Source: Clavibacter californiensis (GTDB lineage: Bacteria; Actinomycetota; Actinomycetes; Actinomycetales; Microbacteriaceae). From it: 64,000 nucleotides of DNA. Each line of letters starts with the position of its first letter. Position 1 is the first letter of the stretch. The stretch lies in contig NZ_CP040792.1 in NCBI RefSeq assembly GCF_021952865.1, forward strand, positions 124,001-188,000, given 5' to 3'. The notes under the pieces are model-generated. The model made no database searches, was not told where the DNA came from, and saw only the letters and a list, made by a program, of their open reading frames with translations. The position numbers and the translations under genes are program-made. Positions 6,947 to 37,667 of this stretch are shown here, one piece after another.

Positions 6947-6990
6947 GACACGAGCCCGGCCCCGCATCACGCGGGTGCCGGGCTCGTGTC
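6947..6990. terminator. bidirectional intrinsic terminator
   Basis: A perfect 14-bp inverted repeat (6947-6960 with 6977-6990) encloses a loop that can pair further through CCCGC/GCGGG. It sits between the convergent ends of the SDR gene and the small membrane-protein gene and could serve both. No strong T-run follows, as is common in high-GC actinobacteria. Confidence 0.8.
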
Positions 6991-7005
6991 GTCCGTCGGA
7001 GTCCG

Positions 7006-7383
7006 TCAGTGCATCGTCGCGAACCGCGTCATGATCTGCGCCGCCACGTTGACGCCGATGATCAGCACGATCCCCGTCGCCGGCGCCCACCACGCGTTCA
7101 CGCGGCGCGTGCGGCAGACGACCGTCGCGATGATCGAGAGCACGAGCACGGCGATGGTGCCGACCACCCACAGCCGCGACGCCAGCTCACCGAGCGGGTA
7201 GTCGCAGCCGGGCACGGCGCAGACCACCGGGGTCCAGCTCGCGACCACCATCGCGACGAGGCCCGCGAAGGCGAGCACCCCCTCGGTCACGAGGAGGATC
7301 ATCGCCAGCCGCGCGTCGTACGGCGGCCGGATCGGGTCGGGTCCCACGAGGCTCGGGCGCTGCGCGGTCTGCTGCTGGCTCAT
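7006..7383 (-). CDS. small membrane protein, function unknown
   Basis: This 125-aa protein starts at the ATG complementary to 7381-7383. After a polar N-terminus (about 25 residues) come three strongly hydrophobic segments, near residues 28-48, 70-90 and 96-115, with a conserved-looking CAVPGCDYPLGE loop between the first two that holds two Cys. It resembles small integral membrane proteins common in Microbacteriaceae, and I do not recognise a function. It is divergent from the first GH26 gene across 210 bases and convergent with the SDR gene. Confidence 0.75.
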   Translation of the reverse strand: MSQQQTAQRPSLVGPDPIRPPYDARLAMILLVTEGVLAFAGLVAMVVASWTPVVCAVPGCDYPLGELASRLWVVGTIAVLVLSIIATVVCRTRRVNAWWAPATGIVLIIGVNVAAQIMTRFATMH

Positions 7384-7593
7384 GGTGTCCTCCGTCGGTG
7401 TCGGACCCGCGCATCGGCGGGTGTGCGCGACGTTACTGGTGCGGGGTCCCGCGCGGAAGGGGCTTGCGACGCGGGCATCAGACCGGGACCGCCCATCACC
7501 TGACCGTCCGGCCGTGACCGGACATCGGGCGACGGGTCCAGGGAAGCGTCGGATAGCTTCCGGGGAGCGGACATCCGCAGGAAACTGGACGAA

Positions 7594-8598
7594 ATGACGC
7601 ACCACCCCCGCACCATCCGCACCGCGACCTCCCTCATCCTGGGTCTCGCCCTCACCGCCGGGATCCTCACCGCAGCATCCCCGGCCACCGCCGCCAGCGG
7701 CCCGGCCCCGACCGCCGCGAGCGCCGCGCCCCCCGTCTCCGACGCCCGGCTCCGCTTCGGCGTCGCCACCCCGGGCGGCCCGACCGACGGCAGCGAGCTC
7801 GACGCCGTCGCCGCGCTGGTCGGCGAGAGCCCGAGCATCGTGCTCTCCTACGCCGACTTCACGCAGGCGCCGCCCATCGCGGCCCTCGACTCGGTCGCCG
7901 CGCGCGGTGCCGAGACGCTCCTCACCTGGGAGCCGTGGAAGGCGGGCGCGGGCGCGGATCAGCCCGCGTTCACGAACGCGAGCATCGCCGCGGGCGACCA
8001 CGACGCGTACATCCGCGACTGGGGCGCCGCCCTGGCGACGTGGGGCGGACCCGTCTACCTCCGCTACGCGCACGAGATGAACGGCGACTGGTACCCGTGG
8101 GCCGAGGGCGTCAACGGCAACGCGACCGGCTCCTACGCCGCCGCCTGGCGCCACGTGCACGACGTCGTCGTCGCACAGGGCGCGACCAACGTGAAGTGGG
8201 TGTGGACACCCAACGTGCCGTACACCGGATCCACCGACCTCGCCGGCCTCTACCCCGGCGACGCGTACGTCGACGTCGTCGGGCTCGACGGCTACAACTG
8301 GGGCACCGGCGTCGCCGGGCACGCCTGGACCTCGCCCGCCGACCTCTTCGGCCCGGGGCTCGCGCAGCTGCGCGGCATCGCCCCGGCGAAGCCCGTCGTC
8401 ATCGCCGAGACCGCGTCCTCCGAGATCGGCGGATCCAAGGCCGAGTGGGACACCGACCTCGTCGCGTTCCTGCAGGCCCAGCCCGACGTCGTCGCCTTCG
8501 TCTGGTTCGACATGGACAAGGAGGCGGACTGGCGCATCGGCAGCTCCGCGTCGTCCGCCACCGCCATCCGGGACGCGCTCGCCGCCCGTCGCGCCTGA
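7594..8598 (+). CDS. secreted GH26-type glycoside hydrolase (beta-mannanase/lichenase-like)
   Basis: This 334-aa protein has a signal peptide (Arg-containing N-region, hydrophobic core 13-28, cleavage near ATAAS). The catalytic domain carries RYAHEMNGDWYPW with the presumed acid/base Glu161, and VIAETASSE with the presumed nucleophile Glu272, the arrangement of GH26 enzymes that cut beta-mannan or mixed-linkage beta-glucan. The closing WFDMDKEADWRI segment is shared with the next gene. The ATG at 7594 is preceded by AGGAA and a TAGCTT -10-like box about 35 bases upstream. It is exported and probably acts on plant cell-wall hemicellulose. The exact substrate is not determined. Confidence 0.85.
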   Translation: MTHHPRTIRTATSLILGLALTAGILTAASPATAASGPAPTAASAAPPVSDARLRFGVATPGGPTDGSELDAVAALVGESPSIVLSYADFTQAPPIAALDSVAARGAETLLTWEPWKAGAGADQPAFTNASIAAGDHDAYIRDWGAALATWGGPVYLRYAHEMNGDWYPWAEGVNGNATGSYAAAWRHVHDVVVAQGATNVKWVWTPNVPYTGSTDLAGLYPGDAYVDVVGLDGYNWGTGVAGHAWTSPADLFGPGLAQLRGIAPAKPVVIAETASSEIGGSKAEWDTDLVAFLQAQPDVVAFVWFDMDKEADWRIGSSASSATAIRDALAARRA

Positions 8599-8707
8599 TC
8601 CGCCCCACCCGTCCCCCGGATCCCGTCGCTCGACGGACATCCGGTGGACGCGGGGCGGAGGAGTGCATACGCTCGCACACATCCGTCGGGGGAAGGACCC
8701 TCTCGCC

Positions 8708-10024
8708 ATGCCCAGACGCCGTCTCATCGAGCGCGCGGTCGTCACCGCCGTCGCCCCCGCGGTCGTGGTGACCGCCACCGTCCTCATCGCCCCCGCCTCC
8801 GTGGCCCGCACCACGGCGACACCCGTCGTGCCCGCGGCCCCCGCCGCCATCGTCCTCTCCGTCGCCTCCGGCCCGGTCGGCACCCCCGTGACGGTCACCG
8901 GCACGGGCTTCCCCTCCAGCAAGGCCGCGGTCGTCGCCGTCGGGTCGACCACGAAGCGCATCACGACCACCGCCACGGGCAGGTTCACGACCGCGGTCGC
9001 GATCCCGCGCACCGTGCTGTCGACCGTCCGCATCACCGCGACCGCGGGCGCCCGTGCGGCCGGATCCGCGTTCACCGTCACGAAGGCGACGTCGAGCGGA
9101 TCCGCGCGCACCACCGCCCCGACGCCCTCGTCCACGAGCGCACCGGCGACCACCGCCCCCGGCGTCAGCTCCGCCCGCCTGCGCCTCGGCCTCTCGACCC
9201 CCGGCGGTCCCACGGCGAACGGCGAGCTCGACGCCGCGTCGGCGACCCTCGGCGAGAGCCCGTCCATCGTGATGAGCCACGTCGACTTCACGCACCCGGC
9301 GCCCATCGCGGGGCTCCAGAGCGTCGCCGCGCGCGGTGCCGACAGCCTCATCACGTGGGAGCCGTGGCAGGGCGGCGCGGGCGTCGACCAGGCCGCCTAC
9401 ACGAACGCGCGCATCATCGCGGGCGACCAGGACGCCCGCATCCGCTCCTGGGGCGCCGACCTCGCGGAGTACGGCAAGACCGTCTACCTCCGCTACGGAC
9501 ACGAGATGAACGGCAACTGGTACCCGTGGTCGGACGGCGTGAACGGCAACGCATCCGGCTCCTACGTCCAGGCGTGGATGCACGTGCACGACCTCGTGGT
9601 CGCGCAGGGCGCCACGAACGTGAAGTGGGTGTGGAGCCCGAACGTGCCGTACCCGGGATCCACCGACCTCGCCTCCCTCTACCCCGGCGCCGACCAGGTC
9701 GACGTCGTCGCGCTCGACGGCTACAACTGGGGCGCCGTCGCCGGCCAGCGCTGGACCGCGCCCGCCGACCTCTTCGGCCCCGGCATCGCGCAGCTGCGCG
9801 CCGTCGCGCCGGGCAAGCCGCTCGTCATCGGCGAGGTGGCCTCGAGCGAGACGGGCGGGTCCAAGGCCGCGTGGGACAGGGACCTGGTCGCGTACCTGCA
9901 GGCGCAGCCCGACGTGCTCGGCTTCGTGTGGTTCGACTTCCAGAAGGAGGCGGACTGGCGCATCGACAGCTCGGCCGCCTCCGCCACCGCCCTCCGCGAC
10001 GCGCTCGCGCTCCGGCGGGGCTGA
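8708..10024 (+). CDS. secreted GH26-type glycoside hydrolase with N-terminal Ig-like (IPT/TIG) domain
   Basis: This 438-aa tandem paralogue of the preceding enzyme has catalytic Glu266 in RYGHEMNGNWYPW and Glu376 in VIGEVASSE. It carries an extra N-terminal module of about 100 residues after the signal peptide (SVASGPVGTPVTVTGTGFPSS...), which reads as an IPT/TIG-like beta-sandwich, followed by a Thr/Ser/Ala-rich linker (about 130-155). The ATG at 8708 has a GGGGAAGGA ribosome site 9 bases upstream and a TACGCT -10 box at 8668-8673. The two hydrolases are separated by 109 bases. The extra module may help attachment to substrate or cell wall (inference). Confidence 0.85.
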   Translation: MPRRRLIERAVVTAVAPAVVVTATVLIAPASVARTTATPVVPAAPAAIVLSVASGPVGTPVTVTGTGFPSSKAAVVAVGSTTKRITTTATGRFTTAVAIPRTVLSTVRITATAGARAAGSAFTVTKATSSGSARTTAPTPSSTSAPATTAPGVSSARLRLGLSTPGGPTANGELDAASATLGESPSIVMSHVDFTHPAPIAGLQSVAARGADSLITWEPWQGGAGVDQAAYTNARIIAGDQDARIRSWGADLAEYGKTVYLRYGHEMNGNWYPWSDGVNGNASGSYVQAWMHVHDLVVAQGATNVKWVWSPNVPYPGSTDLASLYPGADQVDVVALDGYNWGAVAGQRWTAPADLFGPGIAQLRAVAPGKPLVIGEVASSETGGSKAAWDRDLVAYLQAQPDVLGFVWFDFQKEADWRIDSSAASATALRDALALRRG

Positions 10025-10093
10025 TCCCGCGCGTCCGGGCGCCGCACAGTCGCCGCCCAGCCGGCGCATGGGCGTCATGAGGAGCGCGCGGCC

Positions 10094-10099
10094 TACGAT
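10094..10099 (+). promoter_or_regulatory. -10 box (TACGAT) for the alpha/beta hydrolase gene
   Basis: TACGAT lies 7 bases before a GTG at 10107, the spacing of an actinobacterial leaderless promoter. If translation instead begins at the GTG at 10152, the transcript would carry a leader of about 45 bases. Confidence 0.5.
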
Positions 10100-10151
10100 C
10101 TGACCTGTGCCCGTCCGACCCGACGGCGGCGCACACGATGAGGAGGCGGTG

Positions 10152-11462
10152 GTGACCCGAGCCCACCGACGGCGCGAGACAGCGCTCGCCCTCGCCGCCG
10201 TGCTCGTCGGCCTCGTGATCCTGCCGGCCCCGCCCGGATCCGGCGTCGAGGGCGGCTTCGCCCAGCTCGACCGCTACGCCGCCCTCACCCAGGCGCAGGC
10301 CCGACGCATGATCCAGGCGCATCCGGCGCTCGAGCTGCAGGTGATGGACGCGTCGCCGGCGCGCGTCGTCTCCTGGTGGGCGGCCAAGGACCGCAAGCAC
10401 CAGCGCGCGCTGATCCGGAACTCGCCGGCGCTCGTCGGCAACCTCGACGGCGTCGACTACGCCTCGCGCGACGCCGCCAACCGGCGCCAGCTGCGCGCAG
10501 AGCTGCGCACGGAGCGGGAGGCGGTCGCCGCCCACCCGGACGACGCCGACGCGCGCGACCGGCTCACCGCGCTCACGGCGATCCGCGACGCCCTCAAGCC
10601 CGAGGCACGCGCAAGCGGGCACGCCGAGCCGAAGCGCACCCTCGTGTCGCTCAGCCACCGGGATCCGCCGCTCGCCGCCATCGCGGTCGGCGACCTCGAC
10701 ACCGCCCGCCAGGTCACCTTCACGGTGCCGGGCATGGGCACCTACACCGACGACATGCAGCTCTGGACCGAGACCGCGCAGAACGTGTTCGACGCGCAGG
10801 CGTCGGTCGGCGCCCCGGCCGCGCACGCCGTGGTCGCGTGGATCGGCTACCGCACGCCGCCGCCCGGCATAGACGCGACGCTCGGCGACTACGCGGAACG
10901 CGGCGCCCCGATGCTCGCGAGCGAGATCGCCGGGCTGCAGGCCGCCCGGCACGGCGGCGACCTCGCGAGCGTCAGCGTCATCGCGCACTCGTACGGATCC
11001 ACCATGGCCGCCGACGCCCTCGCCGCCCGCGACCTCGGCGTCGACTCCTTCGTGATGCTCGGCTCGGCGGGCGTCGAGGACGGCATCGACGACGCGCGCG
11101 ACCTGCACGCCCGCCACGTCTACGCCGGCGAGGCCGCGGACGACGACGAGGCCGTGTGGGGCCGGCTCTCCCGGCAGGATCCGCGCGCGCCCGCCTTCGG
11201 CGCCACCGTCATCTCCGTCGACGGGGATCCCGCGCGCGGCCTCCTGCCGGTCACCACGCACGCCCCCGTCCTGCACTCGCCGTGGAACGACGACCCGGAC
11301 TCGCGCGCCTGGACCACCATCAGGGACCCCGCCCAGCGCGCCGCCGAGTTCGCCGCGCACGAGAAGACGTACGGCTACCTCGACGCGGGCACGGAGTCGC
11401 TGCGGAACGCGGCCATCGCGACGACGCCGCACGCGACGGCACGGCTGGATCCCGCGGGCTGA
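10152..11462 (+). CDS. secreted DUF1023-type alpha/beta hydrolase
   Basis: Protein of 436 aa from the GTG at 10152, which follows AGGAGG by 5 bases. A leaderless GTG at 10107 would add 15 residues. The N-terminus (TRAHRRRETALALAAVLVG) is a signal peptide or anchor. The C-terminal half carries the nucleophile elbow AHSYGST and a downstream Asp/His arrangement typical of DUF1023 alpha/beta hydrolases, which in actinobacteria are exported esterase-like proteins of unknown substrate. The middle (about 95-160) is charged and probably helical. A hairpin at 11468-11488 separates it from the convergent GT9 gene. Confidence 0.8.
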   Translation: MTRAHRRRETALALAAVLVGLVILPAPPGSGVEGGFAQLDRYAALTQAQARRMIQAHPALELQVMDASPARVVSWWAAKDRKHQRALIRNSPALVGNLDGVDYASRDAANRRQLRAELRTEREAVAAHPDDADARDRLTALTAIRDALKPEARASGHAEPKRTLVSLSHRDPPLAAIAVGDLDTARQVTFTVPGMGTYTDDMQLWTETAQNVFDAQASVGAPAAHAVVAWIGYRTPPPGIDATLGDYAERGAPMLASEIAGLQAARHGGDLASVSVIAHSYGSTMAADALAARDLGVDSFVMLGSAGVEDGIDDARDLHARHVYAGEAADDDEAVWGRLSRQDPRAPAFGATVISVDGDPARGLLPVTTHAPVLHSPWNDDPDSRAWTTIRDPAQRAAEFAAHEKTYGYLDAGTESLRNAAIATTPHATARLDPAG

Positions 11463-11467
11463 CGCGT

Positions 11468-11488
11468 CGCTCCGCCCGCGACGGAGCG
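11468..11488. terminator. short bidirectional terminator hairpin
   Basis: CGCTCCG and CGGAGCG (7 bp, 7-base loop) pair within the 31-base gap between two convergent genes. The position, more than the strength of the stem, supports a terminator role. Confidence 0.6.
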
Positions 11489-11493
11489 CGGGC

Positions 11494-12630
11494 CTACGCC
11501 GTCACGCGCTCCCCGAGCGACGCCCGCCGCAGCTGCTCCACGTCCGCATGCACCTCGTCGACCCGCACCTCGGCCACATGCGACGGGTCGTGCGCGCAGC
11601 GCTCGGCGGTCCAGCCGACCTGGGTCACGTCGACGCCGCAGACGGGGCAGCGCGTGGTCCAGCCGATGTGGATCCGGTGCCGCGTCCGTCCGAAGGCCGC
11701 CGCGTTGATCACGTTGCCGAACCAGAAGACCCCGACCGTGCGCGCGCCGACGGCCTGCGCGAGGTGGCGCGGGCCGCTGTCGTTGCCGAGCACCACGTCG
11801 GCGTGCGTGAAGAGGCCGGCGAGCTCGCCGAGGGTGAGGGAGTCGGCGAGCGAGGTGATCCGCGCGGCCTGCTCCGCGGGCAGCCCGTCGCGGCCGAGCG
11901 CGACGATGCGGTCGGCATCGGCCGCATCCGTGGCGTCGCCCACGACGACCACCTGCGCGTCGTCCGCGGCGGCCCGGCGCGCGACCTCCGCGAACGACTC
12001 CACGGGCCAGCGGCGGCGCGGGTCGGTGGCGCCCGGGTGGATCACGACGAGCCCGCCCGGCGCGCCCGTCACGCGCTCGGCAGCCGCGGCCCGCTCGGCG
12101 TCCGTGACCCGCACCACCGGCTCGAGTTCGGCGACGGGCGCGCCCGCGAGCCCCGCGACCTCGAGCCCGCGCAGCACCTCGTGCTGGTAGTAGACGTACG
12201 GGATCACGCGCTCGAGCCGCTCGGCGTCGTCGGTCGCGGTGCCCACGGTGTGGCGCGCGCCGAGCCGCAGCAGGAACGGGTTCGAGTTGCGGCCGCCGCC
12301 GTGCACCTGCACCGCGAGGTCGAAGCGGCGCGCGCGCACCCGGGCCGCGAACGCCTCGATCTCCGCCGGGTCGGGATCCGTGCCCGGCACGTCCCGGACA
12401 CCGTGCGCAACCGGCAGCACCTCGATCTCGTCGGGCCCGCCGGGTCGACCGCCGAGGAGCGCACGGTGCAGCGGCGTGCCGAGCAGCGTGATCCGCGCAT
12501 CCGGGTACGCAGCCCTCAGCGCGGCGATCGCGGGCAGCGCGAAGATCAGGTCACCGAGCCCACCGCCGCGCAGCACGGCGATGGATCGGACGTCGGGGAA
12601 TCTCTCGTGGAGCGGGGCGACGACGGGCAC
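11494..12630 (-). CDS. glycosyltransferase family 9 (heptosyltransferase-like)
   Basis: This 378-aa protein starts at the GTG complementary to 12628-12630, which is preceded by GGAGG at 8 bases. This choice leaves the GT9 opening (IAVLRGGGLGDLIFALPAIAAL) about 20 residues in. Other GT9 signs are VIHPGATDPRRRWPVESFAEV and the donor-site motif VLGNDSGPRHLAQAVG. The Cys-containing C-terminal stretch (TRCPVCGVDV) is an oddity. The family transfers heptose from ADP-heptose in Gram-negative LPS. Here the heptose genes at both sides make an ADP-heptose donor plausible. It lies 85 bases downstream of lacI on the same strand and may be co-transcribed. Confidence 0.8.
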   Translation of the reverse strand: MPVVAPLHERFPDVRSIAVLRGGGLGDLIFALPAIAALRAAYPDARITLLGTPLHRALLGGRPGGPDEIEVLPVAHGVRDVPGTDPDPAEIEAFAARVRARRFDLAVQVHGGGRNSNPFLLRLGARHTVGTATDDAERLERVIPYVYYQHEVLRGLEVAGLAGAPVAELEPVVRVTDAERAAAAERVTGAPGGLVVIHPGATDPRRRWPVESFAEVARRAAADDAQVVVVGDATDAADADRIVALGRDGLPAEQAARITSLADSLTLGELAGLFTHADVVLGNDSGPRHLAQAVGARTVGVFWFGNVINAAAFGRTRHRIHIGWTTRCPVCGVDVTQVGWTAERCAHDPSHVAEVRVDEVHADVEQLRRASLGERVTA

Positions 12631-12715
12631 GGGGCGGCCTCCAGTTCGGGCGGGCGGGTCCCCCGTCCCGTTCCCCGCGGCGGCCGCATCGAAACGGCAG
12701 CGGACGGACCGCGGA

Positions 12716-13774
12716 TCAGCGCGCGTCGCCCCGCGGCGCCCCCGCGCTCTCGCGCACCACGAGCCGCGTCGGCACGATGCGGTCGCCCGAGGGCTCGCGG
12801 CCGTCAAGCATCTCGAGCAGCACCTGCATCGAGCGGCGGCCGATCTCCGTGAAGTCCTGGTGCACGGTCGTGAGCGGCGGCCAGAACGAGCTCGACTCCT
12901 CGGTGTCGTCGAAGCCGACCACGCTGATGTCGCCCGGCACGTCGCGGCCGAGCTCGTGCAGCGCGTGGATGATCCCGAGGGCCATCTGGTCGTTCGCGGC
13001 GACGATGCCCGTGATGTCGGCGCGCTGCCCGAGCTCCTTCCCGATGCGGTAGCCCGACGCGGTGGTCCAGTCGCCCTGCGCGGGGTCCTCCGGCACGAGC
13101 CCCGCGTCGAGCATGGTCGCGCGCCACTCGGCCGCGCGGCGGGCCGCCGAGTAGGAGGTCGACGGGCCGGCGACGTGCACGATCGCGGTGTGCCCGAGAT
13201 CCAGCAGGTGCTGCGTGACGAGCCGCGTGCCCTGCTCCTGGTCGGTGTCGACGACCACGAAGGGGTCGCCCGCGTCGGAGTCGATGATCACGACGGGCAG
13301 CCCCACGGGGATGATCACGTCGGCCCGGTCGAGCATGTGCGCCTCGATGATGATGACGACCCCGTCGACCGCCTCCTCCTGCAGCCGGCTGAACGCGCCG
13401 GCCACCTCGCCCTCGGTCGGGTGCGGCACGGGCATGAGCGTGATCGTGTACCCGGCGCCGGACGCGGCCGTGACGATCGCGTCGAGCGTGCGCATGTTGC
13501 CGAGGGTGGAGAGCGTGAACATGATGATGCCGATGCTGCGGAAGCGGCCGGTCTTCAGAGCCCGCGCGGCGCTGTTGGGCCGGTAGCCGAGCTCGGCCAT
13601 CGCGTCCACCACGCGCTGCCGGGTCGTGGCCTCCACGTTCTGCGCGCCGTTGGACACGCGGGACACCGTCTGGGCGGAGACCCCGGCGTGCGCGGCGACG
13701 TCCGCCATCGACACGGTGCGGCCGCCGGGCATGCGCCGGCCACCCGACTTGACGGCCGACGGTGGAGATGTCAT
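12716..13774 (-). CDS. LacI family transcriptional regulator
   Basis: This 352-aa protein starts at MTSPPSA (complement of 13772-13774). An N-terminal LacI helix-turn-helix (TVSMADVAAHAGVSAQTVSR, then NVEATTRQRV) is followed by a periplasmic-binding-like sugar sensor (SIGIIMFTLS..., VVGFDDTEESSSFWPPLTTV). It is divergent from the sugar ABC transporter and GH35 operon. The perfect palindrome at 13793-13806 lies just upstream of its start and ahead of the transporter. It is therefore very likely the repressor of that operon and of itself, relieved by a galactoside-type sugar (inference from context). Confidence 0.9.
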   Translation of the reverse strand: MTSPPSAVKSGGRRMPGGRTVSMADVAAHAGVSAQTVSRVSNGAQNVEATTRQRVVDAMAELGYRPNSAARALKTGRFRSIGIIMFTLSTLGNMRTLDAIVTAASGAGYTITLMPVPHPTEGEVAGAFSRLQEEAVDGVVIIIEAHMLDRADVIIPVGLPVVIIDSDAGDPFVVVDTDQEQGTRLVTQHLLDLGHTAIVHVAGPSTSYSAARRAAEWRATMLDAGLVPEDPAQGDWTTASGYRIGKELGQRADITGIVAANDQMALGIIHALHELGRDVPGDISVVGFDDTEESSSFWPPLTTVHQDFTEIGRRSMQVLLEMLDGREPSGDRIVPTRLVVRESAGAPRGDAR

Positions 13775-13792
13775 GGTTGCGAGCATCACAGA

Positions 13793-13806
13793 TGTTTGCG
13801 CAAACA
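13793..13806. promoter_or_regulatory. LacI-family operator palindrome
   Basis: TGTTTGCGCAAACA is a perfect 14-bp palindrome with the central CG typical of LacI/GalR-family operators. It sits 18 bases upstream of the lacI start and 78 bases upstream of the first permease start, so it can control both directions. Confidence 0.85.
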
Positions 13807-13884
13807 CCCAATCCTCACGAGGTGGGTGACCGCCCTTTCGAAACGGGGCGACGGCGCGGAGATCCCCCGACGAAGTGGAAGCAC

Positions 13885-14826
13885 ATGACGACGATGTCGA
13901 CCTCGGCCACCCGGCCGAAGGCGCCCGACGCGGCCCGCCCGAGCGGTCCCCCGATGCGACGCGACAAGCGACGCTGGACCGGACTGGGCTTCGTCGCCCC
14001 GTTCCTCGTGGTCTTCCTCGTCGTCCTCATCGCGCCCGTCGGCTACTCTATCTACCTCAGCCTGTTCCAGGAGCGGATGATCGGCGGCAACTCGTTCGTC
14101 GGCATCGCCAACTACACGCAGGCGCTCAACGACCCGAACTTCTGGGACGCGCTCGGCCGCGTCGCGCTGTTCCTCGTGGTGCAGGTGCCGATCATGCTGT
14201 TCATCGCCCTGTTCGCGGCCCTCGCGCTCGACTCGGCCCGCCTGCACCTCACGGCGTTCTTCCGCATCTCGATCTTCCTGCCGTACGCGGTGCCCGCGGT
14301 CGTCGCGGCGCTCATGTGGGGCTTCATCTACGGCAACCGCTTCGGCCTCGTCGGCAACATCGAGCAGGCCACCGGCTGGGACCTGCCCGACCTGCTCTCG
14401 CAGAGCTGGATCCTCGCGTCGATCGGCAACATCGTCACGTGGGAGTTCGTCGGCTACAACATGCTGCTGTTCTACGCGGCCCTCCGCGTCATCTCGCCCG
14501 ACCTCTACGAGGCCGCCGAGCTCGACGGCGCCGGTCCGTTCCGCATCATCACGGGCATCAAGCTCCCCGCCATCCGCGGTGCGCTCGTCATCGGCGTGAT
14601 CTTCTCCATCATCGGCAGCTTCCAGCTCTTCAACGAGCCGAACATCCTGCAGACGCTGGCGCCGAACGCGATCAGCTCGTACTTCACCCCGAACATGTAC
14701 GCGTACAACCTGTCCTTCGCGGGACAGCAGTTCAACTACTCCGCCGCCATCGCGATCATCATGGGCGTCCTGACGATGGTGGTCGCCTACGTGGTGCAGC
14801 TCGTCGGCACCCGGAAGGACAGCTGA
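13885..14826 (+). CDS. sugar ABC transporter permease (MalF/UgpA type)
   Basis: This 313-aa protein has six predicted membrane segments and the transporter's EAA loop (LYEAAELDGAGPFRIITGIKLP, shown in part), which docks on the ATPase. A GGAAG ribosome site precedes the ATG at 13885. It is the first gene of the operon running permease, permease, binding protein, GH35. No ATPase gene is present nearby, so a shared MsiK-type ATPase encoded elsewhere is expected, as is usual for actinobacterial CUT1 systems. It imports an oligosaccharide, probably a beta-galactoside given the GH35 gene. Confidence 0.9.
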   Translation: MTTMSTSATRPKAPDAARPSGPPMRRDKRRWTGLGFVAPFLVVFLVVLIAPVGYSIYLSLFQERMIGGNSFVGIANYTQALNDPNFWDALGRVALFLVVQVPIMLFIALFAALALDSARLHLTAFFRISIFLPYAVPAVVAALMWGFIYGNRFGLVGNIEQATGWDLPDLLSQSWILASIGNIVTWEFVGYNMLLFYAALRVISPDLYEAAELDGAGPFRIITGIKLPAIRGALVIGVIFSIIGSFQLFNEPNILQTLAPNAISSYFTPNMYAYNLSFAGQQFNYSAAIAIIMGVLTMVVAYVVQLVGTRKDS

Positions 14827-20285: not shown

Positions 20286-21725
20286 GTGACCCCCGACAGC
20301 GCACTCGACATCGACGGCCTCATCGACCCCGCGGAGGCCGAGGCGGGACCCGGGACGCTGCGGATCACGGATCCGCGCGACGGCTCGCTCGTGGGCGACA
20401 TCGACGCGTCGACGCCCGACGAGGTCGAGGCAGCGGTGCGCCGGTCGGTGGAGGCGTCCGCCGCGTGGGCCGCGACGCCGCCCGCCGAGCGCGGTCAGGC
20501 CGTGCGCCGGGCCGCCCACGCGCTCGCCGAGCATGCCGAGCAGCTCGCCGAGCTCAACGCGCGCGAGACCGGCAAGCCGATCGGCGACGCGCGCGGCGGC
20601 GTCGGCGCGGGCGTCGACACGCTGCTCCAGTACTCCGAGCTCGGGCCGGTCCACCGCGGGAAGAGCCTGCTCGGCACGCTCCCCAACGTCGACTTCTCGG
20701 TGCCGCGGCCGCGCGGCGTCACGGTCGCCCTCACGCCGTGGAACGATCCCGTCGCGGTGGCCGCGGGCATCATCGGCGCGGCGCTCGTGATGGGCAACCC
20801 CGTGATCCACAAGCCGAGCGAGCGCTGCCCGCACACGGGCGAGCTGCTCGGCCGGATCCTCGCCGAGGCCCTCCCCGACGGCGTGCTCGTCTCCGTGGTC
20901 GGCGGCGGCGACGTCGGCGACCGGCTCGTCGCGCACGAGGACACGCGCGTGGTCGCGCACGTCGGATCCACCGCCGCCGGCGAGGCCATCGCGCGCCGCG
21001 CCGCCGGCACCCCCACCCACGTCATCCGCGAGAACGGCGGCAACGACCCGCTGCTCGTCGACGCCGGCGTCGACCCCGCGTGGGCCGCCGCGCAGGCCGC
21101 CCTCGGATCCTTCGCCAACGCCGGCCAGATCTGCACCTCGGTCGAGCGGATCTACGTCCACCGCGCCATCGCCGACCGCTTCACCGCCGCGCTCGTCGCG
21201 GAGGCCGAGCGCTGGAACTCCTCCGGCGACCTCGGCCCGCTCGTCGACGAGCGCATGCGCGACGCCGTGCACGAGCAGGTCGCGGAGGCCCTCACCGAGG
21301 GCGCCCGTGCTCTCGTCGGCGGCCACGTGCCCGACGGCCCCGGGTCCCGCTACCCCGCCACCGTGCTCGTCGACTGCACCGCCGACATGACCGTGATGAC
21401 GGCCGAGACGTTCGGCCCGGTCGCGGCCGTGCAGGTCGTCGCGGACTTCGACGAGGCGCTCGCCCGCGCATCCGACGACCGGTACGGGCTCGCCGCCAGC
21501 GTGCTGACCGCGTCGATGGAGCACGCGCAGCGGGCCGCGGCCGAGCTGCCCGTCGGCACGATCAAGGTCAACGGCGTCTTCGGCGGCGCTCCCGGCGGCG
21601 CTGCGCAGCCCCGCGGCCGCAGCGGATCCGGCTTCGGCTACGGCCCCGAGCTCCTCGACGAGATGAGCACCACGACGGTCGTGCACCTGGGGCTGCCGGT
21701 GCTCGACGCGGGCGAGACCCGATGA
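20286..21725 (+). CDS. aldehyde dehydrogenase family protein
   Basis: This 479-aa NAD(P)-dependent aldehyde dehydrogenase has the catalytic Cys283 in NAGQICTS, the general base Glu249 in RENGGND, and the cofactor segment TPWNDPVAVA. The GTG at 20286 is preceded by GAGGAG at 6 bases. Its stop overlaps the ATG of the second HldE by ATGA, so the two are co-translated. That pairing suggests an aldehyde linked to sugar or heptose metabolism, but the substrate is not visible in the sequence. Confidence 0.88.
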   Translation: MTPDSALDIDGLIDPAEAEAGPGTLRITDPRDGSLVGDIDASTPDEVEAAVRRSVEASAAWAATPPAERGQAVRRAAHALAEHAEQLAELNARETGKPIGDARGGVGAGVDTLLQYSELGPVHRGKSLLGTLPNVDFSVPRPRGVTVALTPWNDPVAVAAGIIGAALVMGNPVIHKPSERCPHTGELLGRILAEALPDGVLVSVVGGGDVGDRLVAHEDTRVVAHVGSTAAGEAIARRAAGTPTHVIRENGGNDPLLVDAGVDPAWAAAQAALGSFANAGQICTSVERIYVHRAIADRFTAALVAEAERWNSSGDLGPLVDERMRDAVHEQVAEALTEGARALVGGHVPDGPGSRYPATVLVDCTADMTVMTAETFGPVAAVQVVADFDEALARASDDRYGLAASVLTASMEHAQRAAAELPVGTIKVNGVFGGAPGGAAQPRGRSGSGFGYGPELLDEMSTTTVVHLGLPVLDAGETR

Positions 21726-28074: not shown

Positions 28075-28339
28075 GCGTCCCCCTCAGGTGGTCCGTGCGC
28101 CGACGCCGACATCCCCCGATGCGGCCGGCGGGTGGCGCCGGTCCCCCGCGGTCCCCCGCGCGGATCCCCTGCCTCCACCGCGCCCATCCTCTCATCCATC
28201 GCCCGAGGAAATACGATGGGTACGGCGTCCCGTCGCATGTCCGCGCGGCGCATCCCCATGGTGAGGTGGCCCGCTCCCGGTTACGGTGCGGCTGACCCCA
28301 CGTACGAGCACGGCCGCACCGGCCGCACGAGGAGAGACC

Positions 28340-30438: not shown

Positions 30439-31077
30439 GTGGCCGACGACGGATGGGTGCGGATCCCGGCGCCCACGTACCGACAGCGGCTGCTCTTCGG
30501 GAGCGGCTGGTTCCTCCTGGTCGCATGGCTGAGCATGAACCCCCTCGGTCTCCTCGGCCGACACGTCGAGGACTCCCTCGGCGGCGGGTGGGTCACGGTC
30601 GCCGCCACGGTCCTGTCGGGCGTCGTCGCCGCGGGGGCGATCCTGCTCCTCGCCATCACGCGGCTGTCCCCCGGGCTCGACATCGACGTCGGCCGCGGCG
30701 TCCTCCGCCTCCGCGGGAGAGAGCGCCCCTTCGCCGAGCTCGTGGGCGCGCGCATCGAGGTGGCGCCGGTGCCCCGGGAGTCGCGGTACGACAGGCCCCG
30801 GAAGCGCCCGCGGCGGGATCCCCTCGTGATCCGGCTCGACCTCGCCGACGGCGCCCGGTTCCGCGTCGTGCTCGCGATCGGCGCGACCGACGCGCTCTCG
30901 CCCGAGCGGGCGGCGGCGCTCGTCGCGGCTGTGCGCGGGTCCCGGATCATGACGCCCACCGCGTCCTACGACCCCGACGGCCGCTTCACCCACCTCAACT
31001 TCCCGGGGAGCCTCGACCGGGACGACGCCGTGACGCTCATCGAGGATCCGCAGAGCGCGAGCGTCCTGCCCCGCTGA
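30439..31077 (+). CDS. membrane protein, second of a tandem paralogue pair
   Basis: This 212-aa protein starts at a GTG three bases after the upstream stop. It repeats the first gene's layout: WVRIPAPTYRQR, two membrane segments, DIDVGRGVLRLRG, VGARIE, GSRIMTPTASYDPDGRFTHL. It lacks the second membrane pair. The shared residues show a tandem duplication followed by loss or gain of the C-terminal part. The function is unknown. Confidence 0.7.
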   Translation: MADDGWVRIPAPTYRQRLLFGSGWFLLVAWLSMNPLGLLGRHVEDSLGGGWVTVAATVLSGVVAAGAILLLAITRLSPGLDIDVGRGVLRLRGRERPFAELVGARIEVAPVPRESRYDRPRKRPRRDPLVIRLDLADGARFRVVLAIGATDALSPERAAALVAAVRGSRIMTPTASYDPDGRFTHLNFPGSLDRDDAVTLIEDPQSASVLPR

Positions 31078-33837: not shown

Positions 33838-34820
33838 TGGCCGTCACCGACAGCACGCCCGGCGCCGCCGCGACGCCCGCTGCCGCCACCGGGGATCCGC
33901 GCCTCGCCGCCGCCCTCACTCCGCTGCCGTCGCGGGATCCGTCGCCCGAGCGGCGCGATCCCGACCGCGTCCGCCGCGTGCGGTCCCGCATCGGCCGCGC
34001 CCTCATCACCGCGCTGCTCGTGGGGTTCGCGCTCCTGTTCCTCTACCCGTTCGCATGGCTGCTCGCCGCGAGCCTCAAGCCGCGCGGCGAGGTCTTCGAC
34101 AACTCGCTCTGGCCCCGCACCTTCACGCCGCAGAACTACGTCGAGGTGTGGGAGCAGCTGCCGCTGCTCGGCTGGATGGGCAACAGCCTGGCGATCGCTC
34201 TGCTGTCCGCGGCGCTCGTGTCGATCTCGAGCGCGCTCGTGGCGTTCGGCTTCGCGTACTTCCGGTTCCCGGGCCGCAGGATCCTGTTCGGCCTCGTGCT
34301 CGCCACGATGATGCTGCCGGGCGCCGTGACGATGGTGCCGCAGTTCCTGATCTGGAAGAACCTCGGCCTCATCGGCACGTGGATCCCGCTGTTCGGCATG
34401 AACCTGTTCGGCTCGGCCTTCTACATCTTCCTGCAGCGCCAGTTCTTCCTCGGCCTGCCGCGGGAGCTGTTCGAGGCGGCCCGGCTCGACGGCGCCAGCT
34501 ACTTCGGGATGTTCCGGCGGATCGCGCTGCCGCTGTCGATCCCGTCCTTCGTCATCATCTTCATCTTCGAGTTCCAGGCCAGCTGGAACAACCTGCAGGC
34601 GTCGCTGATCTACCTCAACGCCGGCAGCGTCGAGGGCTTCACCGTGCCGCTCGGGCTGTCCTACGCGATGACCGCATTCAGCCCGACGAACGGCGGCCAG
34701 GGCGACTACCAGCTCGTGATGGTGGCGGCGCTGCTCGTGACCCTGCCGATGCTGCTGCTCTTCGCGTTCGGGCAGCGCTACTTCGTGGAGGGCATCGCGA
34801 CGCAGGGGCGGAAGGGCTGA
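33837..34820 (+). CDS. sugar ABC transporter permease (MalG/UgpE type), second system
   Basis: This 327-aa protein starts at the ATG of the ATGA overlap. A polar 55-residue N-terminus is followed by six membrane segments and the EAA loop ELFEAARLDGASYFGMFRR. It pairs with the preceding permease to form the channel. Its 3' end faces the broken gdx gene, with only 25 bases between the stops. Confidence 0.9.
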   Translation: MAVTDSTPGAAATPAAATGDPRLAAALTPLPSRDPSPERRDPDRVRRVRSRIGRALITALLVGFALLFLYPFAWLLAASLKPRGEVFDNSLWPRTFTPQNYVEVWEQLPLLGWMGNSLAIALLSAALVSISSALVAFGFAYFRFPGRRILFGLVLATMMLPGAVTMVPQFLIWKNLGLIGTWIPLFGMNLFGSAFYIFLQRQFFLGLPRELFEAARLDGASYFGMFRRIALPLSIPSFVIIFIFEFQASWNNLQASLIYLNAGSVEGFTVPLGLSYAMTAFSPTNGGQGDYQLVMVAALLVTLPMLLLFAFGQRYFVEGIATQGRKG

Positions 34821-34845: not shown

Positions 34846-35169
34846 TCAGTGCCCGGTGTCGACGACCTTGAGGCCCACCACGCAACCGACGAGGCCGAGC
34901 AGCAGCAGGACCTTGACGACGCTCGCGGGCTCCTCGCCCGTGACGATCGCGTAGGTCACGGTGAGCGCCGCGCCGATGCCGACCTACACGGCATAGGCGG
35001 TGCCCGTGCTGATCTCGCGCATCGCGTAGGCGAGCCCGATCATGCTCAGCACGACGGCGACGCCGAAGACGATCGACGGCCCGAGCTTCGTGAACCCGGC
35101 GGACTTCCCGAGGGCGGTGGCCCAGACGGCCTCGAGCACCCCGGACACGATGAGGACGATCCACGACAT
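34846..35169 (-). pseudogene. gdx: guanidinium exporter Gdx (SMR family), broken by Trp62 to TAG
   Basis: From the ATG at 35169 the first 61 residues are a typical SugE/Gdx half (MSWIVLIVSGVLEAVW with Glu13, then GTAYAV). Where all SMR proteins have Trp, a TAG stands at 34984-34986. The same frame then continues VGIGAALTVTYAIVTGE... to a TGA at 34846-34848, giving the expected 107 residues. One G-to-A change (TGG to TAG) explains it. AGGAGA lies 5 bases before the start and directly behind the guanidine-III riboswitch. By family Gdx exports guanidinium in exchange for protons through four membrane helices. The truncated product would hold only two. Confidence 0.85.
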
Positions 35170-35181
35170 GGCACTTCTCCT

Positions 35182-35222
35182 GGCCAGTCTTGTCGCGTTC
35201 CGGGTACTGGTCCCTCGTCCGG
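35182..35222 (-). promoter_or_regulatory. guanidine-III riboswitch
   Basis: Read on the minus strand, the 41 bases begin CCGGACGAGG, continue through GUACCCGG and end ACAAGACUGGCC. This is the known class III layout: CCGG/CCGG helix P1, an ACGAGG loop, and a pseudoknot between CCAGU and ACUGG. The conserved ACAAGAC segment is present. It ends two bases before the ribosome site of the gdx gene, so guanidine binding can control its translation. Confidence 0.85.
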
Positions 35223-35233
35223 GAGCGCGGGAA

Positions 35234-35263
35234 GGCGCCCGACCACCACGGTAGCCGGGCGCC
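35234..35263 (-). terminator. terminator after the binding-protein gene
   Basis: GGCGCCCG (35234-35241) pairs with CGGGCGCC (35256-35263). The hairpin lies 31 bases after the minus-strand binding-protein stop and upstream of the riboswitch, so it separates the two transcripts. Confidence 0.7.
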
Positions 35264-36755: not shown

Positions 36756-37667
36756 TCAGGCGAGGAGCAGGTCCACCATCGCGTCACGCGCGCGGGCGCC
36801 CTCGGGGATGGGCATGAGCGCGTACACGTGCAGGAGGTTCGGCTCCACGTGGATCCGCACCGGGTGCCCCACGGCTGCGGCCTTGCGCTCGAAGGCGCGC
36901 GCGTCGGCGAAGAGGATGTCGTGCGTGCCCGAGAACACGGTCACGCGGCCGAGGCCCGCGAGCGATCCGTGCATCGGGCTGACCCGCGGGTCCTCCACGG
37001 GAAGGTCGCCGCGCCACGACTCCACGGCGGCGCGCATGCCGTCGACCGCGAGCCACGGGTCGGTCGGCTGGATGCGGGCGATGAGCGGATCCGTGAACGA
37101 CAGGTCGAGCGCGGGCGAGAGCAGCACCACGTCGCGCGGCGCGGGCACACCGCGGTCGCGGAGCACCATCGCGGTCGACAGCGCGATCTGCCCGCCGGCC
37201 GAGTCGCCCAGGAGCGTGACGGCGCCGGGGCCGACCTCGGCGACGAGCGCCTCCGCGAGATCCGCCGTGCGCTCGACGACCTCTGCGGCCGTGGCCGACG
37301 GGACGAGCGGGTAGATGGGCACGGTGAACGTCGTGCCCGTGCGCCGGGCGAGCCCCGCGACGAGCCACCAGTGGAACGGGCTGATCTCGTGGGTCCAGCC
37401 GCCGCCGTGCGCGTACAGCGCGCGACGCCGGGACGCGGGACCCGTCGGGGACACCTCGTACACGTGCCAGCCGCCCTGGATCCGGGCCGTCACGCGCACC
37501 CCGCGGAGGAGCGGCGGCGGCGCGAAGCCACCCGGCCGGATCACGCGCCGGTGCGCGCCGCCCATCGTGCGCGCGGGCGACGCGAACTCCGCCTGCCCGC
37601 CCACGAGGGCGATCACGGGCCGGGCGATGCGGGACAGCAGGCTGCGGCGGGTGCGCGTTCCGGTCAT
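36756..37667 (-). CDS. alpha/beta hydrolase fold-3 esterase/lipase
   Basis: This 303-aa protein has the HSL-type oxyanion motif YAHGGGW and nucleophile elbow GDSAGG (LLGDSAGGQIALS). A late catalytic Asp/His pair is likely in SGTHDILFADA and EPNLLHVYALMP. No signal peptide is seen, but a hydrophobic stretch near the N-terminus (ARPVIALVGG) may associate with membranes. It starts 12 bases after the glpX stop and is probably co-transcribed with it. The substrate is unknown. Confidence 0.85.
   Translation of the reverse strand: MTGTRTRRSLLSRIARPVIALVGGQAEFASPARTMGGAHRRVIRPGGFAPPPLLRGVRVTARIQGGWHVYEVSPTGPASRRRALYAHGGGWTHEISPFHWWLVAGLARRTGTTFTVPIYPLVPSATAAEVVERTADLAEALVAEVGPGAVTLLGDSAGGQIALSTAMVLRDRGVPAPRDVVLLSPALDLSFTDPLIARIQPTDPWLAVDGMRAAVESWRGDLPVEDPRVSPMHGSLAGLGRVTVFSGTHDILFADARAFERKAAAVGHPVRIHVEPNLLHVYALMPIPEGARARDAMVDLLLA

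What the first reader, a model, noticed from the sequence alone, without database searches (positions are those of the whole stretch)
34846..35222. Guanidine-III riboswitch drives a gdx guanidinium exporter that is dead by a single Trp-to-amber change
The minus strand shows a class III guanidine aptamer (CCGGACGAGG ... ACAAGAC with a CCAGU/ACUGG pseudoknot) abutting the ribosome site of a SugE/Gdx-type SMR gene. The gene is intact in frame except that the invariant Trp after GTAYAV is TAG (34984-34986), with the second half still open to a normal end. The riboswitch is preserved while its gene is newly broken, so the loss looks recent or strain-specific.
Basis: partly seen in the sequence, partly recalled or inferred. 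Interest (0 to 1): 0.85.

Follow-up and report, generated by a model that had tools for sequence, protein, structure and literature searches.

The report
Guanidine switch before a broken exporter
In one Clavibacter genome an intact RNA switch that senses guanidine sits in front of a guanidine exporter gene that is cut short by a single stop codon, probably a recent chance loss and otherwise an ordinary, well-known gene arrangement.

Summary
Rfam's Guanidine-III model matches 35243-35179 (-) at 54.9 bits (cut-off 36), 9 bases before the ATG of an SMR gene of the Gdx type. The gene is open except for TAG at codon 62 (34986-34984). The genus is Clavibacter. The 17 other Clavibacter genomes held all have the riboswitch and an unbroken gene behind it. 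Of 40 SMR matches in the 18 genomes, only this one has a stop inside; it is this genome's only SMR match. The copy has 3 private changes in 324 bases and all 11 aptamer pairs stand, so the break is young, or a base-call error. No amber-suppressor tRNA was seen among 45 tRNAs. W62F at the aligned position eliminated guanidinium exchange in Gdx-Clo (PMC7695847, passage). The genome also carries a predicted guanidine carboxylase pathway, which might make the loss tolerable, though 12 of 12 relatives with a full-length carboxylase keep the exporter. Reads and other strains of the species could not be checked. Low interest.

The parts
35179..35243 (-). Guanidine-III riboswitch aptamer (Rfam RF01763), full-length match
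   Evidence: 54.9 bits, gathering score 36; the only RF01763 match found in the genome
35182..35222 (-). Aptamer core: one helix 35222-35219 with 35203-35200 and one helix 35213-35206 with 35188-35182
   Evidence: 11 of 11 pairs standard in all 4 distinct core sequences of 18 genomes; the window's one private base turns a U-G pair into C-G. The helix layout given to one search was my own reading (recalled from the class's structure and seen in the sequence).
35177..35181 (-). Shine-Dalgarno-like AGGAG directly after the aptamer core, 7 bases before the ATG
   Evidence: sequence; at the same place in 10 of 18 Clavibacter genomes, a few bases further on in 3, other sequences in 5
34987..35169 (-). 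Open first part of the gdx/SMR gene, codons 1-61, with E13, W16 and S42
   Evidence: PF00893 49.3 bits; SugE model PRK11431 62.3 bits, below its whole-protein cut-off of 126, as expected of a fragment; aligns 1-60 to Gdx-Clo 6wk5_B without gaps. The searches used codons 1-60.
34984..34986 (-). In-frame TAG at codon 62
   Evidence: a sense codon in 17 of 17 other genomes of the genus
34846..34983 (-). Still-open second part of the gene, 45 codons and the TGA
   Evidence: aligned to residues 64-103 of 6wk5_B at E 9.4; no PF00893 match on its own

Best explanation
A standard Guanidine-III riboswitch-gdx unit, general in Clavibacter, in which the exporter gene has been inactivated by one private nonsense change. 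The aptamer should still bind guanidine, and by the published mechanism of the class this frees the Shine-Dalgarno sequence and stabilises the mRNA. Translation then ends after 61 residues, so no working exporter is made. The loss may be tolerable because the same genome carries a predicted guanidine carboxylase pathway. Shown: the anatomy, the conservation in relatives, the privacy of the stop. Taken from papers: how the class works and that the aligned residue is essential in Gdx-Clo. Inferred: that the base is real, that the aptamer still works, and why the loss is tolerated.
For: RF01763 match over cut-off here and in 18 of 18 genomes of the genus. Stop in 1 of 18 orthologues and in 1 of 40 SMR matches in the genus; no premature stop in 80 of 80 relatives kept from the genome-contig scan (two of them Clavibacter, also among the 17), 71 of which have a guanidine-III-like motif upstream by a rough pattern. 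Window-private changes in the gene: 3 of 324 bases (one V-to-I, the stop, one silent); aptamer core 11 of 11 pairs. No CTA anticodon among 45 tRNAs. No other clear break in the part of the window compared with two relatives, about 13.3-64.0 kb. W62F eliminated Gdm+ exchange in Gdx-Clo (PMC7695847, passage). Guanidine-III mechanism: PMC12186494, passages. Predicted guanidine degradation: full-length carboxylase (1759.6 bits) with Asp aligned to K. lactis N1330, a criterion given in PMC11410670 (passage), next to UAAP2- and UAAP1-type genes and a permease, with an allophanate hydrolase elsewhere.
Against: No reads, so a base-call error is not excluded. One genome per species, so strain-level spread is unknown. 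The carboxylase explanation is weak: 13 of 18 genomes have a full-length carboxylase over the cut-off, and the other 12 of those 13 keep an intact gdx. RNA folding of the leader was not informative (z -0.24). Within the genus only one of 11 aptamer pairs varies, so the pair count cannot show covariation.
Confidence: 0.72

Rival explanations
1. The TAG is a sequencing or assembly error, and the gene is intact in the living strain.
For: Everything else about the locus looks maintained: 3 private bases of 324 and an intact aptamer. A single private substitution is what an error would look like. No reads are held.
Against: The genome is in 2 contigs with 100% completeness and 0.07% contamination. 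No other clear frame break was seen in about 13.3-64.0 kb of the window against two relatives, so the assembly does not look error-ridden. Single-base substitution errors are rarer than indels in finished genomes (recalled).
Confidence: 0.23
2. The gene still works: the amber codon is suppressed or read through, or the second part is made separately and joins the first.
For: The second part is still open and close to its relatives in sequence.
Against: No CTA-anticodon tRNA among the 45 tRNAs found. The first in-frame GTG in the second part has no evident ribosome site (my reading of the sequence). Closeness of the second part to relatives is equally expected of a young break. The aligned residue is essential in Gdx-Clo, so the inserted residue would have to be right.
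Confidence: 0.03
3. The riboswitch is kept because it controls something other than gdx.
For: The aptamer is intact although its gene is broken.
Against: The next likely coding frame downstream, a permease-like frame ending at 34820, is on the opposite strand and converges, so no other gene evidently follows on the transcript. Three private changes in the gene show that there has been little time for decay of either part.
Confidence: 0.02

Closest known systems
Guanidine-III (ykkC-III) riboswitch, Rfam RF01763
   Same: Full-length covariance-model match over the gathering score; a Shine-Dalgarno-like site directly after the core; upstream of an SMR gene; in an actinobacterium, where the class is mainly found (PMC12186494, passages)
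   Different: Nothing seen in the aptamer; only that the controlled gene carries a stop
Gdx guanidinium exporters (SMR family PF00893; Gdx-Clo, PDB 6WK5)
   Same: The piece before the stop aligns gap-free with residues 1-60 of Gdx-Clo and has E13, W16 (conserved in Gdx, not Qac, by PMC7695847) and S42
   Different: Stop at the codon that lines up with W62; no complete protein
Intact orthologues in 17 other Clavibacter genomes
   Same: Same riboswitch-gene unit, 91-97% identical over the 324 gene bases; upstream flank shared by 16 of 17 and downstream flank by 15 of 17
   Different: No stop inside the gene; in one genome (G001) neither flank matches the window

Membership tests
Guanidine-III riboswitch (RF01763) | Covariance-model score above the curated cut-off | tested here: met
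   54.9 bits against 36, full model
Guanidine-III riboswitch (RF01763) | Two core helices formed in all orthologues | tested here: met
   11 of 11 pairs standard in 4 distinct sequences from 18 genomes; only one pair varies, so covariation cannot support it within the genus
Guanidine-III riboswitch (RF01763) | Binds guanidine and turns the gene on | not testable with these tools
   needs in-line probing or a reporter
SMR family, Gdx subtype | SMR family model match | tested here: met
   PF00893 49.3 bits for the 60-residue first piece, cut-off 23.7; the second piece alone has no PF00893 match
SMR family, Gdx subtype | W16, which separates Gdx from Qac subtypes (PMC7695847, passage) | tested here: met
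   E13 and W16 in the first piece, gap-free alignment to Gdx-Clo
SMR family, Gdx subtype | Complete four-helix protein with the conserved residue at position 62 | tested here: not met
   TAG at codon 62: as sequenced a gdx pseudogene, not a working member
Guanidine carboxylase (the genome's other guanidine route) | TIGR02712 over cut-off and Asp at the position of K. lactis 1330 (PMC11410670, passage) | tested here: met
   1759.6 bits, cut-off 1303.85; residue D750 aligned with N1330 of chain 5i8i_A, counted by hand on the printed alignment
Guanidine carboxylase (the genome's other guanidine route) | Conserved Asp at the position of K. lactis 1584 (PMC11410670, passage) | tested here: inconclusive
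   A motif GLGDVYLG is seen in the protein, but the printed alignment was cut at that place
Guanidine carboxylase (the genome's other guanidine route) | Prefers guanidine over urea in an assay | not testable with these tools
   needs enzymology

The most novel reading that the evidence does not exclude
The loss is adaptive or permitted rather than accidental: this lineage has moved from exporting guanidine to breaking it down through a guanidine carboxylase cluster that has no Rfam riboswitch nearby, leaving an orphan guanidine riboswitch in front of a dead exporter.
Probability: 0.1. Interest if true: 0.4.

Novelty: new member of a known kind. Interest (0 to 1): 0.2.

Why it matters
If the base is real, this is a natural gdx-null strain in which the sensor outlived its gene, and it gives a small natural test of whether guanidine export matters to an organism that may also degrade guanidine. 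It adds nothing to the known riboswitch or transporter types.

Tried and rejected
Amber suppression: one search lists 45 tRNA matches at E 0.01 or better. 30 became loci, 13 were fetched as short stretches, one lies in the window, and the last (C1:1251657-1251729) lies inside two of the 30 loci and was read there as tRNA-Glu. No CTA anticodon appeared.

General decay of the window: coding-frame predictions (100 residues or more, coding-like composition) of two relatives were compared with the window. The stretches fetched match about 17.4-64.0 kb (G015) and 13.3-64.0 kb (G011), with gaps, so the first 13 kb were not compared. 52 and 45 predictions were made, 32 and 28 had hits, 30 and 27 passed 60% identity. 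Besides gdx, stops showed at 21723-21725 in both relatives' comparisons (a variable C-terminal tail of an otherwise full frame of 510 codons), at 28262-28264 (a frame predicted in G011 only, judged spurious by its Arg/Pro-rich look) and at 30950-30952 (the window's own frame 30439-31077 is whole). One split at 37134 is the relative's, since the window's frame 36756-37667 is whole and matches the other relative throughout. Two partial matches lie at the window's edge. Genes that the relatives lack, or frames the filter dropped, would be missed.

Other guanidine riboswitches in the genome: Guanidine-I and Guanidine-II gave no match (for Guanidine-II 150 of 2726 first-look candidates were scored). 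Rfam as a whole gave nothing over cut-off in the 18 kb around the carboxylase. The rest of the genome was not searched for Guanidine-IV.

Leader folding gave z -0.24 and is no evidence either way. One search was a poor trial alignment and is not used.

Literature: full-text searches 'Clavibacter + guanidine + riboswitch' and 'Clavibacter + pseudogene + small multidrug resistance' found 0 papers each in the held library; nothing beyond that library is claimed. Searches were used as listings. Papers were seen as found passages only: PMC7695847, PMC7736828 (not used), PMC12186494, PMC11410670.

The species of the window was not identified; the tools say that records of its own genome may be left out of the named collections.

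Full report
What is there. On the minus strand a full-length Guanidine-III aptamer lies at 35243-35179 (54.9 bits, cut-off 36), the only such match found in the genome. Its core is 35222-35182. AGGAG follows at once (35181-35177), then an ATG at 35169. The frame runs through E13, W16 and S42 to GTAYAV and then TAG (34986-34984), after which it stays open to TGA at 34848-34846. The first piece matches the SMR family (PF00893 49.3 bits) and aligns gap-free to residues 1-60 of the guanidinium exporter Gdx-Clo (6wk5; identity of the entry from PMC7695847, passage). The second piece aligns in register to residues 64-103 of the same chain, but only at E 9.4; it matches no NCBIfam model at E 1 or better and no Pfam SMR model.

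Where it is. The genus is Clavibacter: two of the same-genus contigs have the lengths of named Clavibacter contigs (5,913 and 3,268,273 bases), and 20 of 21 plasmid records similar to the first 12 kb of the second contig are Clavibacter. The species was not identified.

Is the stop shared? Not in what is held. In the 18 genomes of the genus (this one and 17 others), all 18 have one Guanidine-III match over the cut-off, and all 17 others have an unbroken gene behind it. The upstream flank is shared with the window in 16 of 17 and the downstream flank in 15 of 17; in G001 neither is. Over all SMR matches of the genus, 1 of 40 has a stop inside, this one. In 199 genomes of the family (141 with a match), every SMR match listed is without a stop, but the list was cut and does not reach the window's own match. 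In 80 of 80 loci kept from the genome-contig scan the gene is open for 104 codons or more; 71 of 80 show a guanidine-III-like motif upstream by a rough pattern, and 17 of 80 lack the exact GTAYA[VI] motif used to read the position, the other 63 having a sense codon there.

How old is the break? Against 17 relatives the window copy has three private bases in 324: one valine-to-isoleucine change, the stop, and one silent change. In the aptamer core one base is private, and it turns a U-G pair into C-G, so all 11 pairs stand. There is thus no visible decay beyond the stop itself. This fits a recent loss and equally fits a base-call error. About 13.3-64.0 kb of the window is otherwise free of clear breaks against two relatives, and the assembly is in two contigs at 100% completeness, which favours a real change without proving it.

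How it works. By the published account of the class (PMC12186494, passages) guanidine binding forms a pseudoknot that frees the Shine-Dalgarno sequence and protects the mRNA. Here induction would yield a 61-residue fragment that lacks the second half of helix 3 and helix 4 (layout from PMC7695847, passage). In Gdx-Clo even W62F eliminated guanidinium exchange (same paper, passage). No amber-suppressor tRNA was found among 45 tRNAs. No other gene evidently follows on the transcript, since the next likely coding frame downstream converges from the other strand.

Why the loss may be bearable. This is the genome's only SMR match; 11 of 18 genomes of the genus have two more, and 7 of 18, this one included, have only the riboswitch-linked one. 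But the genome has a full-length urea/guanidine carboxylase with Asp at the position that separates guanidine from urea carboxylases (counted by hand; criterion from PMC11410670, passage). Beside it lie a UAAP2-type gene (307.2 bits on the long frame, cut-off 284.7; 280.2 on a shorter cut), a UAAP1-type gene (290.2 bits, cut-off 205.95), a permease of the urea carboxylase system (658.6 bits, below its cut-off of 740.45) and a TetR-like regulator (below the cut-offs of all models listed). An allophanate hydrolase lies elsewhere (608.2 bits, cut-off 511.05). No Guanidine-I or -II riboswitch was found in the genome and no Rfam family over cut-off near the cluster. Against this reading: 13 of 18 genomes have a full-length carboxylase, and 12 of those 13 keep gdx intact, so the one case shows no association.

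Verdict. It is an ordinary, well-characterised riboswitch-exporter pair with a private nonsense change in one genome, real with fair probability, of low general interest.

Noticed in passing
G000 and 17 same-genus genomes: 11 of 18 Clavibacter genomes have two further SMR genes lying close together at another locus; the window's genome has no match for them.
   Followed up: partly
L165 (G000:C1:448500-466500), 6949-14512: A predicted guanidine carboxylase cluster: TetR-like regulator, carboxylase with Asp at the specificity position, UAAP2- and UAAP1-type genes, permease of the urea carboxylase system.
   Followed up: partly
window 35210 (-): The window alone has C where the other 17 genomes have U in the longer aptamer helix, turning a U-G pair into C-G.
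   Followed up: yes
G001 (L018): In this one Clavibacter genome the riboswitch-gdx unit lies between flanks that do not match the window's.
   Followed up: no
window 21723-21725 (+): The C-terminal tail of a 510-codon frame differs from both relatives and ends earlier; probably a variable tail.
   Followed up: partly
L144 13439-14176, against window 36756-37667: A frame that is whole in the window and in one relative appears shortened in the other relative (G015).
   Followed up: no
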